Positions 32,413 through 41,298 of a stretch of DNA of 44,942 nt are shown piece by piece. A program made the position numbers and the translations under genes. The stretch comes from Laspinema palackyanum D2a (GTDB taxonomy: Bacteria; Cyanobacteriota; Cyanobacteriia; Cyanobacteriales; Laspinemataceae). The notes under the pieces were generated by a model. The model was not told where the DNA came from. It ran no database searches and saw nothing but the letters and a program-made list of their open reading frames with translations. Where the stretch lies: the NCBI GenBank assembly GCA_025370845.1, contig JAMXFF010000001.1, positions 231,120 through 276,061 of the forward strand, given 5' to 3'. Position 1 is the first letter of the stretch. Every line of letters begins with the position of its first letter.

Positions 32413-33095
32413 CAAATTCCTTTATACGGCACAGACTCCTGCTTTGTATTATCCCTCAGTCTTTGCCTCGTGGGTAGTGCTTCAGGCTGAATCTGCCTGG
32501 AATCCACTGCTGCCCAGGACCAGAAACCCTGTTTTTCTACAAAATCTCAGGCAATCAGCCACAAATCCATCGCAGAAACCCGGTTTCTCATTTTAGGTGA
32601 AATCTCTGGGGTGAGGGGTCCGATGGCTGCCCTGCTACGGGTTAGGGATCGGCGCATTCCGAGACTAAATTAGGGAAAACAGTATGAAGAGCCAATCTAT
32701 CATCATACCATTTCTCGTTTTTTATTTTGCAATAGTTTTATTGATAAATATTGATAATTTCTAAAACTGCAAAGCAATAGAATTAAACTAGCTTGGACTC
32801 AAAGGGTTTGAGATCTCCCAATTGGGTGAGATTGTTAATCCGGCCTTGAGGCATCCCTTAATTTAGGTCTACCTGGGGAGTGTTTTTTTGCCTCCAGGTA
32901 GATGAGAGGCTGATGTATAGGAAGCTGACCCAAGCCGTGGCGATCGCCTTTCCTGATCTACATCAGGGCTTAAATCTCCCCTCTTCTGTAGGGGCAAAAA
33001 AGCCAAAACCCTTCTAGGACCAAGAGTTGCCACTCATTGGACATGGGTACACGACGGGACCATTCCCCCTCGAAAAACCGAAACACAGGTGCGCT
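32413..33095. other. Divergent gap between ABC-F and the fusion gene
   Basis: About 680 bases with no gene seen. Palindromes: AGAAACC/GGTTTCT (32574-32588, centre C), and a hairpin with arms TCTACCTGG (32868-32876) and its complement (32894-32902) around a T-rich loop. Neither has a clear role. The frame of the fusion gene extends to a TTG at 33027. Confidence 0.45.
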
Positions 33096-34148
33096 ATGAA
33101 CCAAGACACTCTAAAAACTCAAATCACCCCCGATCGCGAGGCGATTCAACTCTGGCTGCAACAACAGCCTCCCCACCAACGCCGCGATCGCCGCTTATGG
33201 GTCAAAGAGTTTTTAGCGTTTGTCGGGAAACCTCTGGCGGTGGTTACCTTAGCTGATGTCCGGGCCTTTGCTCAAACCCTCGCCGCCCGTCGCATCCCAC
33301 CCAAACAAGCTCAAGCGCGATTGTCCGTAATCAAGTCGCTGTTTGCCTATTGGTATCGTCAGGGGCAGTTGCCGGTGAATATTCCCCTTCAACATTGGCC
33401 CAAAGTCCGGGTTAAGGGACAGTCGCCTTCGAGTTCAGCGATTCTCCTCGGGATGCTGTCTGATTTAGGATCTACCCTCAGACAGAGATTTGGGCGAAAG
33501 TCCCGGAAACCCGCCACCCGTCAGAAGCAGGCCGCGTTCTGGGGTGGAGTCTGTTTGGCGGGGGTGGCGTTGGTGATTCCCGCTCATCTCAACTCTCAAG
33601 CGGAAACCACGGAAGAAGTCACAATTCCCCAGCCTGCGCCCCAAATTCGACGCCAAAGGGTGGCAAACCTCAAGGCAGCTCAGGTCCAGGCTTTTCTCGA
33701 TACGATCGCCTGGGCGGAAGGCACTGCCGGTCCCAACGCCTATCGGATGCAGTTTACCGGGAGCAAGTTTGCGAGTTTTCAGGATCATCCCCGGGAAATC
33801 AAATGTGGGTCTAGCTACGGGTCCCGACTTTGTTCCGATGCCGCAGGCAAGTATCAGTTTCTGAGTACCACTTGGGACCCCCTGGCTAAAAAAATAGGCG
33901 CGTCTGATTTCTCCCCTACGAATCAAGACCGCGCCGCGATCGCCCTGTTGGATGAATATGGGGTCTTAGAAGATATTGAGGCGGGTTCCTTCGCCTATGC
34001 GGTGATCCAGTTGATTCCCGTCTGGCCTTCCCTTCAGGATGTGGGCAATGGCGATCGCGCCCGGGCGATCGCCCGCTTGGAACAGGTATATCAGAAAAAA
34101 TTACGGAAGCATTCTTTTCAGCAAGCAGCGTTCCAGAAAAATAATTAG
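33096..34148 (+). CDS. Fusion: recombinase SAM-like domain, membrane anchor, GH104 muramidase
   Basis: 350 residues from ATG 33096. Residues about 10-105 match the core-binding (SAM-like) N-terminal domain of tyrosine recombinases: WVKEFLAFVGKPLAVVTLAD, a helix ending ARLSVIKSLFAYWYRQGQLP, then HWPKV. The catalytic recombinase domain is missing. A basic linker leads to one membrane helix (about 147-165). Residues about 195-315 match lambda endolysin R, GH104: FLDTIAWAEGT with catalytic-type Glu208, SFQDHPREI, AGKYQFLSTTWDPL and FSPTNQDRAAIALL. Cys237 and Cys246 could form a disulphide. So the muramidase should be periplasmic and the DNA-binding-like part cytoplasmic. Physiological role unknown. 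TTG 33027 would add 23 residues. Confidence 0.88.
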   Translation: MNQDTLKTQITPDREAIQLWLQQQPPHQRRDRRLWVKEFLAFVGKPLAVVTLADVRAFAQTLAARRIPPKQAQARLSVIKSLFAYWYRQGQLPVNIPLQHWPKVRVKGQSPSSSAILLGMLSDLGSTLRQRFGRKSRKPATRQKQAAFWGGVCLAGVALVIPAHLNSQAETTEEVTIPQPAPQIRRQRVANLKAAQVQAFLDTIAWAEGTAGPNAYRMQFTGSKFASFQDHPREIKCGSSYGSRLCSDAAGKYQFLSTTWDPLAKKIGASDFSPTNQDRAAIALLDEYGVLEDIEAGSFAYAVIQLIPVWPSLQDVGNGDRARAIARLEQVYQKKLRKHSFQQAAFQKNN

Positions 34149-36558: not shown

Positions 36559-39500
36559 ATGAATTTAACCCGGATTCATATTATTGAAAAAAACTCGTTA
36601 ATGATCGCGCCAGATACCGGGGCGAGTGAGGCGATCGCCCTCATGAATCAACAGCGTTCCAGTTGTGCATTAGTCGTGGAGAATCATCAGGTAGTCGGCA
36701 TTTTGACCGAGGGCGATATAGTCCGAATGACCGCCGAGGCGATCGACCTTAACAGCGTCAAAGTTGCAGCAATTATGACCCGTGATCCAGTCGGGATCGT
36801 GGTTTCCGCTGAGTTAGATATTTTTTCCGTATTATCAACCCTGCGCCAGCACAAAATTCGCCACTTACCGGCTATGGATGAGTCCGGAAATATCCTGGGG
36901 GTGATTACCCAAAATACTATCCGCCAAGCCCTTCAACCCACAGATTTATTAAAATGCCACCAAGTCGCTCAGGTAATGAGCGATCGCGTGATTCACTTAC
37001 CCCCGACCGTTTCTCTGAGGGAAATCACTCAAAAAATGACCCGAGAGCAGGTCAGTTGTATTGTCATTGTTGACCCCAACCATCACTCAGGAACGATACC
37101 GCTTGGTATGATTACCGAACGGGATATCGTTAAATTTTGGGCTTCAAATTTAAACTTAGCAGAAATTGTCGCCTCCGAGGTCATGAATACCCCGTTGCTT
37201 GCGATTAAACCCGGGGATTCCTTGTGGGATGCTCATCAATTAATGGAAAAACATGAAATTCGCCGCTTAGTGGTGGTGAATGAATCGGGAAATTTAGCAG
37301 GCATACTCACTCTAACCAGCCTGTTAGAAGCCCTCGACCCGATTGAAATGTACAAAACCCTAGAGGTGTTAAAAGAGCAAGTGAATCGCGGAGGGATTGA
37401 GCTAAATCAGTTAAACGAACGCCTCCTGGAGGAAATTGCCCTGCGAGAACAGGAATTGCAGGAACGGTCCCGACTTGAGGGGGAATTGAAAGTCGCCCGC
37501 GCCGAGGCAGAAGCCGCCACAAATCGGGTGACGGATCTCCTGGAAAGTATTACGGATGCCTTCTTTTTTCTGGATTTCCAGTGGCGATTTACTTATATTA
37601 ATCCCCAAGCCGAATTGCTCTTTCAAAAACCTCTCAAAGAACTCCTGGGTCAAAGTCTTTGGGTGGAATTTCCCGAAGCGAGGCAAGGGAGATTTTATGA
37701 AGAATATCACCGGGTTGTTGCGGAAAACATTAGCCGGGAATTTTTGGAATTTTATCCCCCCATGAATCGCTGGTTTAACATTCATGCTTATCCCGCCCAG
37801 GAGGGGATTTTGGTGTATTTTGAAGATGTTACAGAGCAGATTCAAGCCGAAGCCTCTCTAAAAGAAAGCGAACAGTTTTTACGCAGCATCTATGAAGGGG
37901 TAGAAATGGCGATTTTTATTGTGGATGTCTTGGCAGATGGCACGTTTCGCTACTTTGATAGTAATCCCACCCATGAACGGATTTGGCAGATTTCCGCAGA
38001 AGAAATGACCGGGACCACTCCCGAACAGTTGTTGCCTCCATCCGTCGCTGAGGAGGTGATGCAGCGGTATCGCCACTGCATCGAAACTAGAGAACGGATA
38101 ACCTATGAAGAAAAGCTACCCTTAGAGGGCCAAGAAAGTTGGTGGTTGGCCCACTTAAGCCCAATTTTTGACAGTAGCGATCGCATTTACCGGCTGATTG
38201 GGACGAGTTTTAACATCACCGATCGCAAGCAAGCGGAAATTGCCCTGGAACAGCAACTCAAGCGCGAGCAATTACTCAATGCCATTCAAGACCGGATTCG
38301 TTCCTCCTTGAATTTAGAAGAAGTTTTAACAACCGCTGCCCACGAAGTCCGCCAATTTTTATCGAACGATCGCCTGTTAATTTATCGAGTTGATCCCGAT
38401 GGCACCGGCATCGTGGTTACCCACTCGTCCGACCCCCTTGCACCTGAGATTAACGGGAATACTTTTCCCCAGGAATGCTTTAGCCCACAGGAACTGGACC
38501 GTTACACTCAGGGGGAAATTGTAGCCATTGAAAATACCGAGTTAGTCACAGATTTCCCTTGTCTAGCGGTATTAATAAAAACCCTCAAAATTAAGGCTCA
38601 ACTGGTCATTCCGATTTTAAAAGAGCAAAATTTGTGGGGTTTACTGATTGCCCATCATTACCGCAGTCCCCGAGAATGGCATTCCTCGGAGATAGAATCC
38701 CTGCGCTCTATTGCCGGACAACTGGCGATCGCCGTTCAACAATCCATCTTATTTGAGCAAGCCAAGGCTGAACTAATTGAGCGTCAAAAAGCTGAAGAAG
38801 CTTTGCAAGCCAGCCAACGCTTCGTGCAGAATATCGCGGATACTTCTCCCAACCTCTTATATATTTACGATATTTTAGAACAGAGGAACATTTATGTAAA
38901 CCGAGAACTCGCCAAAATGTTGGGCTATTCTGATGAAGAAATTTCCAAATTTGGGCCTAATTTGTTAACATCCCTGATTCACCCCGAGGACTTGGACAAA
39001 ATTCCCGAACATTTTCAAAACCTCTCCCAAGCGCAAGAGGGAGAGATTTTTGAACTGGAATATCGGATCAGAAATAGTCAGGGAGAATGGAGCACGGTTT
39101 TAGCTCGGGAAACGATTTTCTCCAGAACAGAAGAGGGCATCGTCAAGCAACTTTTAGGCACAGCAACGGATATTACCCACCTCCGGGAAAGTGAAGCCGC
39201 CTTGCGGGAAAGTGCCGAACGGGAAAAGGCAGTCGCTTCCGCAGTCCAGCGGATTCGTCAATCCCTAGATTTAGGGACAATTTTTGCGGCAACTACGGAA
39301 GAATTGCAAGGATGTTTAACCTGTGATATTGTGGCGATTTACCGTTTTAATCCGGATTACAGTGGCGAGTTTGTTTCGGAAGCCGTCACATCACCACGAG
39401 TTTCAGTCTTGCAAAGAAACCACCAATCCCTGTACCTATCCGCGCAACCGGATCCCGAGCAACTTTGCCAGATGCAAGTTCTGATTAATTCTTGTGTAGA

Positions 39501-41298
39501 GTGGCAAGATACCCATCTGATTCAGACTGGAGGGGGTGATTTTAAGCGAGACGAGAATTGCTTGGTGGTGGAAGATATTTATCAACGCAATTTTAGCCCT
39601 TGTTACTTAGGACGATTAGAAGAATTTCAGGTTAGAGCTTACATGATTGTCCCGATTTTTTGCGGCTCAAAACTGTGGGGATTGTTAGCCGCTTACGAAA
39701 GCGATCGCCCGAGACAATGGCAACCGAGCGATCGCAAGATTGTCATCCAAATTGGCAATCAATTGGGGGTTGCCTTGCAGCAAGCGGAATTGCTCGAACA
39801 AACCAAGAAGCAATCAGAAGCCCTCCAAAAAGCGGCGATCGCAGCGGATGCGGCGAACCAAGCTAAAAGTGAATTTCTCGCGAATATGAGTCACGAATTG
39901 CGAACCCCACTGAATGCGATTCTAGGATTTACCCAACTGATGAATCGCCATTCATCCGATCGCCCCCAACACCAGGAACACTTGAGAATTATCAATCAAG
40001 CCGGAGAACATTTACTCTCGTTAATTAATGATATTCTGGAAATGTCAAAAATTGAAGCGGGGAGAACTATTTTTAACCCGACTTCCTTTCATTTAATTTC
40101 TTTACTCCGAAACCTAGAAGCAATGTTGAAGGTTCAAGCCCAACTCAAAGGCTTAACCCTAAATTTTGAATTGGATAAAAATTTGCCGCCAGTAATAATT
40201 TCTGATGAGAGCAAGTTGCGGCAGGTTTTATTTAATATGTTAGGGAATGCGATTAAATTCACGAACTCGGGTGGGGTGACCTTGCGGGCCAAACACGAAT
40301 CATATTTAAACAATAATTCCCTAAATAATTCCCCGATTTTCTCGGAAACACCATCAAACCTTTGCATTGAAATTGCCGATACCGGAGCTGGCATTGCGCC
40401 GGAAGAAATGATTCAGCTATTTGAACCCTTTTCCCAAACCGAAACGGGCCGCAAATCCCAGCAAGGCACAGGATTAGGATTGCCGATTAGTCGCAAATTT
40501 GTTCAATTAATGGGAGGAGATATTCACGTCCGCAGCACCCAGGGAGTCGGAACGGTGTTTAGCTTTAAGATTCAAATTGTGGAAATCAACGCGCTCCCAG
40601 AACCTTCGGTTCAAACCCCTGGACAAGTGATTGGGTTAGACTGTGATCAGGAACGCTATCGGATTTTAGTCGTCGATGATGCGGTTAATAATCGGCGGTT
40701 TTTAGTGACCCTGCTTTCCGAGATCGGGTTTGAGGTCCGCGAAGCCGAAAATGGTCAAGAGGCGATCGCCCTCTGGTCCAGTTGGGAGCCTGATTTGATT
40801 TGTATGGATATGCGGATGCCCGTCCTAGATGGTTATCAAGCAACCCAACAGATTAAAGCGAGTCTGAAAGGGCAGGAAACCGTGATTATCGCGCTGACTG
40901 CCAGCGCTTTTGAAGAAGAAAGGCAAGGGATTTTAGCTTGCGGTTGTGATGATTTTCTGCACAAACCGTTTCGAGAAGAAGTCCTCCTAGAAAAAATATC
41001 CAGTCATCTAGGGGTTACCTATCGTTATGCACCAAAAAATCCTCCCTGTACCCAAGAATCTTCCTCTAAATCTAACCTATTAAATCGACATGAAATTAAA
41101 AAATATTTATCTCAAATGCCCTCGGAATTTGTCACAAATCTTTATCAATTTGCTTCGCAAGGTTACGATGAAGGAATTTTTGAATTACTGGAATTCATCC
41201 CATCAGAAAATAGCTCTCTCGCTCATACCTTGAGAGAATTAACCAAAAATTTTGATTTTGAAATGATTATTGAATTAACTGAACAGGAGGAGGCATGA
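36559..41298 (+). CDS. Multisensor hybrid histidine kinase, CBS-PAS-GAF
   Basis: 1579 residues. Order: two CBS pairs (about 1-125 and 130-265), coiled coil (270-325), PAS (about 325-430), PAS (about 437-560), GAF (about 575-730), PAS (755-880), GAF (about 890-1075), HisKA SHELRTPLNAI (His1112), ATPase (LFNMLGNAIKFT, GTGLGLPIS), receiver (Asp1417 in CMDMRMP, Lys1469 in LHKPF), and an 80-residue helical tail. The CBS domains should bind adenine nucleotides. The first GAF has Cys640 and Cys668, the second Cys1015 in SPCYLGRL, both near bilin-attachment positions. No membrane segment. Its stop overlaps the start of the next gene by ATGA, so the pair is one operon. Start ATG 36559. Confidence 0.94.
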   Translation: MNLTRIHIIEKNSLMIAPDTGASEAIALMNQQRSSCALVVENHQVVGILTEGDIVRMTAEAIDLNSVKVAAIMTRDPVGIVVSAELDIFSVLSTLRQHKIRHLPAMDESGNILGVITQNTIRQALQPTDLLKCHQVAQVMSDRVIHLPPTVSLREITQKMTREQVSCIVIVDPNHHSGTIPLGMITERDIVKFWASNLNLAEIVASEVMNTPLLAIKPGDSLWDAHQLMEKHEIRRLVVVNESGNLAGILTLTSLLEALDPIEMYKTLEVLKEQVNRGGIELNQLNERLLEEIALREQELQERSRLEGELKVARAEAEAATNRVTDLLESITDAFFFLDFQWRFTYINPQAELLFQKPLKELLGQSLWVEFPEARQGRFYEEYHRVVAENISREFLEFYPPMNRWFNIHAYPAQEGILVYFEDVTEQIQAEASLKESEQFLRSIYEGVEMAIFIVDVLADGTFRYFDSNPTHERIWQISAEEMTGTTPEQLLPPSVAEEVMQRYRHCIETRERITYEEKLPLEGQESWWLAHLSPIFDSSDRIYRLIGTSFNITDRKQAEIALEQQLKREQLLNAIQDRIRSSLNLEEVLTTAAHEVRQFLSNDRLLIYRVDPDGTGIVVTHSSDPLAPEINGNTFPQECFSPQELDRYTQGEIVAIENTELVTDFPCLAVLIKTLKIKAQLVIPILKEQNLWGLLIAHHYRSPREWHSSEIESLRSIAGQLAIAVQQSILFEQAKAELIERQKAEEALQASQRFVQNIADTSPNLLYIYDILEQRNIYVNRELAKMLGYSDEEISKFGPNLLTSLIHPEDLDKIPEHFQNLSQAQEGEIFELEYRIRNSQGEWSTVLARETIFSRTEEGIVKQLLGTATDITHLRESEAALRESAEREKAVASAVQRIRQSLDLGTIFAATTEELQGCLTCDIVAIYRFNPDYSGEFVSEAVTSPRVSVLQRNHQSLYLSAQPDPEQLCQMQVLINSCVEWQDTHLIQTGGGDFKRDENCLVVEDIYQRNFSPCYLGRLEEFQVRAYMIVPIFCGSKLWGLLAAYESDRPRQWQPSDRKIVIQIGNQLGVALQQAELLEQTKKQSEALQKAAIAADAANQAKSEFLANMSHELRTPLNAILGFTQLMNRHSSDRPQHQEHLRIINQAGEHLLSLINDILEMSKIEAGRTIFNPTSFHLISLLRNLEAMLKVQAQLKGLTLNFELDKNLPPVIISDESKLRQVLFNMLGNAIKFTNSGGVTLRAKHESYLNNNSLNNSPIFSETPSNLCIEIADTGAGIAPEEMIQLFEPFSQTETGRKSQQGTGLGLPISRKFVQLMGGDIHVRSTQGVGTVFSFKIQIVEINALPEPSVQTPGQVIGLDCDQERYRILVVDDAVNNRRFLVTLLSEIGFEVREAENGQEAIALWSSWEPDLICMDMRMPVLDGYQATQQIKASLKGQETVIIALTASAFEEERQGILACGCDDFLHKPFREEVLLEKISSHLGVTYRYAPKNPPCTQESSSKSNLLNRHEIKKYLSQMPSEFVTNLYQFASQGYDEGIFELLEFIPSENSSLAHTLRELTKNFDFEMIIELTEQEEA

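What the first reader, a model, noticed from the sequence alone, without database searches (positions are those of the whole stretch)
33096..34148. Tyrosine-recombinase DNA-binding domain fused across a membrane helix to a lambda-R-like muramidase
The sequence shows a core-binding (SAM-like) recombinase domain (about residues 10-105) without its catalytic partner, a basic linker, one membrane helix (147-165) and a GH104 muramidase domain with its Glu208 and two cysteines. Established: the recombinase domain grips DNA, and GH104 enzymes are periplasmic-side peptidoglycan transglycosylases. Together this would let a wall enzyme be tied to DNA or to a recombination complex on the other side of the membrane, for example in septum or DNA-uptake biology. 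I do not know a described system with this layout. No neighbouring phage lysis genes are present, so a domesticated phage enzyme is an alternative.
Basis: partly seen in the sequence, partly recalled or inferred. Interest (0 to 1): 0.82.

Follow-up and report, generated by a model that had tools for sequence, protein, structure and literature searches.

The report
Recombinase-derived domain on membrane muramidase
A cyanobacterial gene really does join the DNA-gripping half of a mobile-element recombinase, through one membrane helix, to a cell-wall-cutting enzyme; the fusion is old and kept by selection, and the recombinase part has probably been reused as an inner-face docking module rather than kept as a DNA clamp.

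Summary
Window 33096-34148 (+) encodes an intact 350-aa protein: tyrosine-recombinase core-binding (CB) domain, basic linker, one probable membrane helix, and a lambda-R-type (GH104-like) muramidase with its catalytic Glu. It is no assembly error: I read the same single-ORF fusion in 57 of 388 genomes of the order (three families); two more carry it split, as derived copies. Within the genus both domains are under purifying selection (dN/dS 0.20 and 0.23). The fused CB domains are separated from 90 free recombinase rows by a 99/99 branch.

The DNA-tether reading is weakened. Three positions kept in 90/90 free recombinases (T/S28, Y/F32, T/S71) survive in 14, 2 and 6 of 57 fusions, while fold positions stay (56-57/57). 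Net positive charge has risen, so non-specific DNA binding is not excluded. Best reading: a RodZ-like bitopic protein whose borrowed DNA-binding fold docks the muramidase to a cytoplasmic partner.

A parallel: two other genomes have a related membrane muramidase whose cytoplasmic part is a truncated, active-site-dead IS6/IS240 transposase. Unrelated mobile-element DNA enzymes thus ended up in such envelope proteins at least twice.

The parts
33096..34148 (+). whole gene: CB domain - linker - membrane helix - muramidase, 350 aa plus stop
   Evidence: intact homologues in 57 of 388 order genomes
33132..33383 (+). tyrosine-recombinase core-binding (SAM-like) domain, residues 13-96
33384..33533 (+). 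basic linker, residues 97-146; fast-evolving in its 106-146 part (dN/dS 0.39)
33534..33590 (+). probable membrane helix, residues 147-165, N-in by charge
   Evidence: hydropathy and charge only
33681..34115 (+). lambda-R-type muramidase domain, residues 196-340
33717..33719 (+). codon of Glu208, aligned with the conserved E of the lambda lysozyme EGT motif
   Evidence: 59 of 59
33804..33833 (+). codons of Cys237 (33804-33806) to Cys246 (33831-33833), likely periplasmic disulphide (inference)
   Evidence: 57 and 59 of 59

Best explanation
The gene makes a bitopic inner-membrane protein. The C-terminal muramidase sits in the periplasm and cuts glycan strands. The cytoplasmic end is a tyrosine-recombinase core-binding fold that lost its catalytic partner and most of its recombinase-specific surface, and now works as a docking module that places the wall enzyme (at the divisome, elongasome, septal pores or nucleoid edge), much as the DNA-binding-type fold of RodZ binds MreB instead of DNA. 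Shown here: domain make-up, conservation, selection, one origin of the fused CB domain, loss of signature residues, retention of the muramidase Glu. Inferred: topology, enzyme activity, docking role. Unknown: the partner.
For: Fusion kept in 57 of 388 order genomes in three families. CB domain as constrained as the muramidase within the genus (dN/dS 0.20 against 0.23). Fold positions kept (W20 56/57; F39, F58, S81, L82, K45, P46 57/57) while T/S28 (14/57), Y/F32 (2/57) and T/S71 (6/57), present in 90/90 free recombinase rows, are lost. Muramidase Glu kept 59/59. Layout and size match RodZ: 337 aa, N-terminal DNA-binding-type domain, basic linker, one helix; its HTH binds MreB, not DNA (PMC6946637, one passage read). 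The IS6-type fusions show the same course from another fold: dead active site, membrane helix, muramidase.
Against: No partner, localisation or activity is known. Net charge of the CB domain rose (mean +7.6 against +3.6 over the same columns), with new Arg/Lys at 29, 63, 65 and 66, which would suit DNA or anionic lipid. Which CB residues touch DNA is inferred from conservation, not from a solved complex. No gene neighbour is shared by all families, so there is no hint of the partner.
Confidence: 0.5

Rival explanations
1. DNA tether: the CB domain still binds DNA, now non-specifically through a positive surface, and links the chromosome or incoming DNA to local wall cutting.
For: Fold intact; net charge higher than in free recombinases; precedent that a dead recombinase can stay a DNA binder: MrpR of phage SPbeta (PMC10516654, passages read).
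Against: Loss of T/S28, Y/F32, T/S71 and of basic residues at 24 (25/57 against 81/90), 74 (18/57 against 64/90) and 88 (12/57 against 69/90). MrpR keeps a second, catalytic-type domain, which is absent here.
Confidence: 0.25
2. Transmembrane regulator of the ToxR/CadC layout: the muramidase senses wall fragments and the cytoplasmic domain regulates genes.
For: Bitopic layout with a DNA-binding-type fold inside and a glycan-binding domain outside.
Against: The catalytic Glu is kept in 59 of 59, so it looks like an enzyme and not only a sensor; recombinase signature residues lost.
Confidence: 0.08
3. Inert cap: any cytoplasmic stub would do, and the recombinase piece is just the leader that happened to be fused in front of the membrane helix.
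For: Related muramidases have very different N-termini: short basic tail plus helix (L018, L019), signal-peptide-like starts (L020-L022), several hydrophobic stretches (L119-L121).
Against: dN/dS 0.20 in the CB domain and invariant fold positions across families show that the domain itself is selected.
Confidence: 0.1
4. Chimera or frameshift: two genes joined by a sequencing or assembly error.
For: Two genomes (G331, G363) have the two parts in separate, overlapping frames.
Against: 57 genomes with the intact fusion; the split copies nest inside the fused clade.
Confidence: 0.01

Closest known systems
Bacteriophage lambda lysozyme R (GH104)
   Same: Homologous enzyme domain with the EGT Glu.
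   Different: R is a soluble endolysin; here it is tethered, carries two conserved Cys (237, 246; not aligned to Cys), and lies in a chromosomal neighbourhood.
XerC/XerA-type tyrosine recombinases, cyanobacterial lineage with the 'LW.HG' and 'KPL..VTL.D' motifs
   Same: N-terminal CB domain homologous over 92 columns.
   Different: No catalytic domain; positions 28, 32 and 71 lost.
RodZ
   Same: Bitopic protein of about 340 aa with a DNA-binding-type cytoplasmic domain, basic linker and one helix (PMC6946637, passage).
   Different: HTH fold instead of CB; no muramidase domain (recalled).
MrpR (YopR), repressor of phage SPbeta
   Same: Recombinase fold whose recombinase function is lost (PMC10516654, passages).
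   Different: Soluble DNA-binding repressor with both recombinase domains.
IS6/IS240-transposase - helix - muramidase fusions, L023 and L024
   Same: Same order: dead mobile-element DNA enzyme fragment, basic linker, helix, muramidase of the same family.
   Different: Unrelated N-terminal fold (PF13610 at 5.9e-11 and 3.5e-12); 2 of 388 order genomes.

Membership tests
Tyrosine recombinase / phage integrase | CB (SAM-like) domain | tested here: met
Tyrosine recombinase / phage integrase | C-terminal catalytic domain with the R..H..R..H..Y set | tested here: not met
   hhalign aligns only the CB part; residues 196-340 are muramidase; Pfam shows no catalytic integrase domain
GH104 / lambda R muramidase | sequence and fold homology | tested here: met
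GH104 / lambda R muramidase | catalytic Glu | tested here: met
   Glu208, 59 of 59
GH104 / lambda R muramidase | lytic transglycosylase activity | not testable with these tools
   needs enzyme assay
Phage lysis cassette | neighbouring holin, spanin or other phage genes | tested here: not met
   Of 8 flanking proteins, 6 have Pfam hits (ABC-F-like, TPR, TENA, cyclophilin, methyltransferase, histidine kinase) and none is phage-like; 2 have no hit
RodZ | bitopic layout with DNA-binding-type cytoplasmic domain and basic linker | tested here: met
   (helix by hydropathy)
RodZ | XRE/HTH cytoplasmic domain | tested here: not met
   no HTH family in Pfam up to E 1; fold is CB
RodZ | binding to MreB | not testable with these tools
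   needs interaction assay

The most novel reading that the evidence does not exclude
Cyanobacteria have recruited decommissioned DNA enzymes of mobile elements at least twice, from unrelated folds (tyrosine-recombinase CB domain; N-terminal half of an IS6/IS240 transposase), as cytoplasmic modules of membrane proteins, in both cases on the same kind of muramidase, so that wall cutting is steered by a domain that once handled DNA. This would be an unnamed kind of envelope protein that couples nucleoid or cytoskeleton to peptidoglycan cleavage.
Probability: 0.35. Interest if true: 0.82.

Novelty: new variant of a known kind. Interest (0 to 1): 0.64.

Why it matters
Wall hydrolases must be told where to cut. 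This protein appears to carry its own cytoplasmic guide, and the guide comes from a mobile element. It is a directly testable case of how recombinase and transposase folds are tamed into cell-biology parts, in filamentous bacteria whose growth and septal pores depend on local wall cutting. I found no description of this architecture in four searches of the open-access library (listings only); subscription papers and preprints were not searchable.

Tried and rejected
Chimera or frameshift: rejected (57 intact copies). Prophage endolysin: rejected for this gene by its neighbours; 0 of 550 matching phage records and 0 of 125 matching plasmid records cover 80% of the protein, and none of the 80 viral loci kept out of 545 matches the CB part. 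Chance SAM match: rejected. Gene neighbours as clue to function: flanks differ between families; I found no partner common to all. Separate muramidase lineages for the CB-type and IS6-type fusions: the best tree keeps them apart, but the AU test does not reject one clade (p 0.485), so only the two N-terminal domains are certainly of separate origin. Foldseek gave no match at E<=0.001 for the CB model. One mixed alignment (A5) was discarded because the recombinase rows aligned to the muramidase part. No Rfam match in the window.

Rows dropped: CB matches under 70 residues and identical CB sequences before the CB tree; muramidase rows under 110 residues, above E 1e-15, identical or over 88% alike before the muramidase tree, 170 to 102 rows. 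The CB tree and charge count used the 47 fusions read by then; one search used all 57. The 90 free recombinase rows were taken from loci found with recombinase queries or the CB profile; they were not each checked for catalytic residues. Both trees have few columns and unsettled bootstraps. One of the 57 fusions (L053, G366) has an altered start in place of the first CB helix. Three papers searches gave nothing used for the argument.

Full report
What is there. The window lies in a 7.4-Mb genome held as 116 contigs. The named relatives found with the gene are Phormidium pseudopriestleyi, Laspinema olomoucense and an Oscillatoria (90, 88 and 88% identity), so this is a Laspinema-like cyanobacterium (filamentous: recalled). 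ORF 33096-34148 is open, and its ATG is conserved at the same place in all 7 genus members read.

The N-terminal domain. Single-sequence Pfam scores fall short of the curated cut-offs, so I tested the family. SAM_4 hits 10 of 15 diverse N-domains at E<=0.01. Against seven full-length cyanobacterial tyrosine recombinases, hhalign aligns 92 columns at 99.6% probability, E 2e-24, inside their CB part. By profile the only PDB sequence match is XerA, weak at 0.003. AlphaFold2 with recombinase rows gives a four-helix domain (pLDDT 79.9); Foldseek ranks XerA first, followed by integrase N-domains, lambda Int and Cre, but with no E-value under 8e-3. In a phylum sample of 386 genomes the N-domain profile is bimodal: 9 matches at 131-146 bits, each the fusion, and 32 matches at 45-74 bits in ORFs of 218-331 aa; the 218-aa one, read, is a shortened recombinase.

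The C-terminal domain. Lambda lysozyme is the closest solved structure by sequence, profile and fold (TM 0.82 on the target). Pfam lists no family for it; PHROG 90 endolysin scores 1.8e-29. Glu208 is kept in 59 of 59.

The membrane helix. Hydropathy peaks at 147-165 (1.79); in the seven CB fusions tested the peak before the muramidase is 1.40-2.12, with 6-12 K/R in the 25 residues before and 2-3 after. This is modest evidence: peaks inside the CB domain reach 1.39-1.56, and the full AlphaFold2 model is below pLDDT 50 from 107 to 189.

Age and distribution. In the order sample of 388 genomes I read the intact CB-helix-muramidase ORF in 57: families f1 8, f2 41, f20 8 (47, 10 more). In the class sample of 388 the full-length matches were four genomes of the same order; the list was cut near E 1e-14, far below any fusion's score. 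Two genomes (G331, G363) have the gene in two overlapping frames, parting at an A/K-rich junction; both nest inside the fused clade, so they are derived or draft errors. G005, an 87%-complete member of the genus, lacks the gene beside the TPR gene, where unrelated sequence lies; its other flank ends at a contig edge inside the ABC-F gene. Seven of eight genus members have it. In G009, of another genus, the ABC-F gene is again next door.

Selection. Among 7 genus members, dN/dS (Nei-Gojobori) is 0.20 for the CB domain, 0.13 for the helix, 0.23 for the muramidase, 0.39 for linker 106-146 and 1.0 for residues 1-11. The CB domain is not a decaying relic.

Origin. In a 139-row CB tree the 47 fused rows and the two split copies are separated from 90 free recombinase rows by a 99/99 branch. 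In a 102-row muramidase tree the 15 CB-fused rows form one group (93/83) and the two IS6-fused rows another (100/98); holding both together is not rejected (p 0.485).

Does it still bind DNA? I compared 57 fusions with 90 free recombinase rows. Fold positions are kept: W20 56/57; F39, F58, S81, L82, K45 and P46 57/57. Positions present in 90/90 free rows are lost: T/S28 14/57, Y/F32 2/57, T/S71 6/57. Basic positions fall too (24: 81/90 to 25/57; 74: 64/90 to 18/57; 88: 69/90 to 12/57). Against my reading, net charge over residues 13-96 is higher in 47 fusions (mean +7.6, range -2 to 11) than in 90 recombinase rows (mean +3.6, range -1 to 10), with more Arg/Lys at 29, 63, 65 and 66; the rows are related, so the p-value printed there is not independent evidence. 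Recombinase-style recognition is probably gone; non-specific binding to DNA or anionic lipid is open.

The parallel. Two order genomes (G039, G030; L023, L024) carry a muramidase of the same family, behind a basic linker and helix, whose cytoplasmic part is the N-terminal half of an IS6/IS240 transposase (PF13610 at 5.9e-11 and 3.5e-12, match ending at profile position 66-75 of 139). A search of 388 order genomes found these two full fusions only. It also found, in 14 genomes of family f13, ORFs of 189-229 aa with the same transposase part; the 11 that I read all have a strong hydrophobic helix (2.14-3.16) near the C-terminus and no muramidase. In all 13 membrane-linked copies read, the first catalytic Asp (WRVDE in 5 of 5 free transposases, two of them identical) is Val or Ile; by eye, the Arg-Trp pair at the end of the HTH is in 5 of 5 free and 0 of 13 membrane-linked copies. 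In 7 of 7 f13 neighbourhoods the next gene downstream on the same strand is one family of 419-459 aa, which Pfam names O-antigen ligase in the two tested. The 13 membrane-linked copies fall on one side of the tree at 94/95, unstarred and with long branches. I take this as a second case of a dead DNA enzyme reused in an envelope protein.

Mechanism. The layout equals that of RodZ, whose HTH domain binds MreB and not DNA and whose linker is basic (PMC6946637, one passage read). MrpR shows the other possible fate, a recombinase fold kept for DNA binding (PMC10516654, passages read). Weighing lost signature residues against raised charge, I put docking at 0.5 and the DNA tether at 0.25.

Membership. 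It is not a tyrosine recombinase (no catalytic domain), not a RodZ (no HTH match) and not a phage lysis gene by context. Its enzyme half belongs to the lambda R / GH104 kind by sequence and fold, with activity untested.

Noticed in passing
L023 (G039:C19) and L024 (G030:C123): Membrane muramidases whose cytoplasmic part is a truncated IS6/IS240 transposase with its first catalytic Asp lost; a second, unrelated mobile-element domain on the same kind of enzyme.
   Followed up: yes
L345-L347, L349, L351-L356, L358 and neighbourhoods L363-L369 (family f13): A stand-alone protein of about 190-230 aa, dead IS6-type transposase part plus membrane helix, in 14 genomes; in 7 of 7 neighbourhoods it precedes a gene that Pfam calls O-antigen ligase (2 of 7 tested).
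   Followed up: partly
window 32517-32590: A roughly 70-bp dispersed repeat next to the gene, ends resembling AGAAACC/GGTTTCT, with 17 further copies at 74-82% identity in the same genome (40 of 191 candidates scored, so a lower bound) and matches in related genomes.
   Followed up: partly
L110 (G331:C133) and L127 (G363:C457): The fusion gene is split into two overlapping frames at an A-rich junction in two draft genomes of one genus: draft error, decay or frameshifting not decided.
   Followed up: partly
L002 (G000:C116:46314-46730) and relatives L029-L031, L033, L035: A second, divergent muramidase of about 220-250 aa behind one N-terminal hydrophobic stretch, with a match in many order genomes and no added domain; it forms its own clade.
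   Followed up: no
window 36559-41298: A 1579-aa hybrid histidine kinase with CBS, PAS, GAF and receiver domains downstream; also present beside the TPR gene in G005, where the muramidase gene is missing.
   Followed up: no
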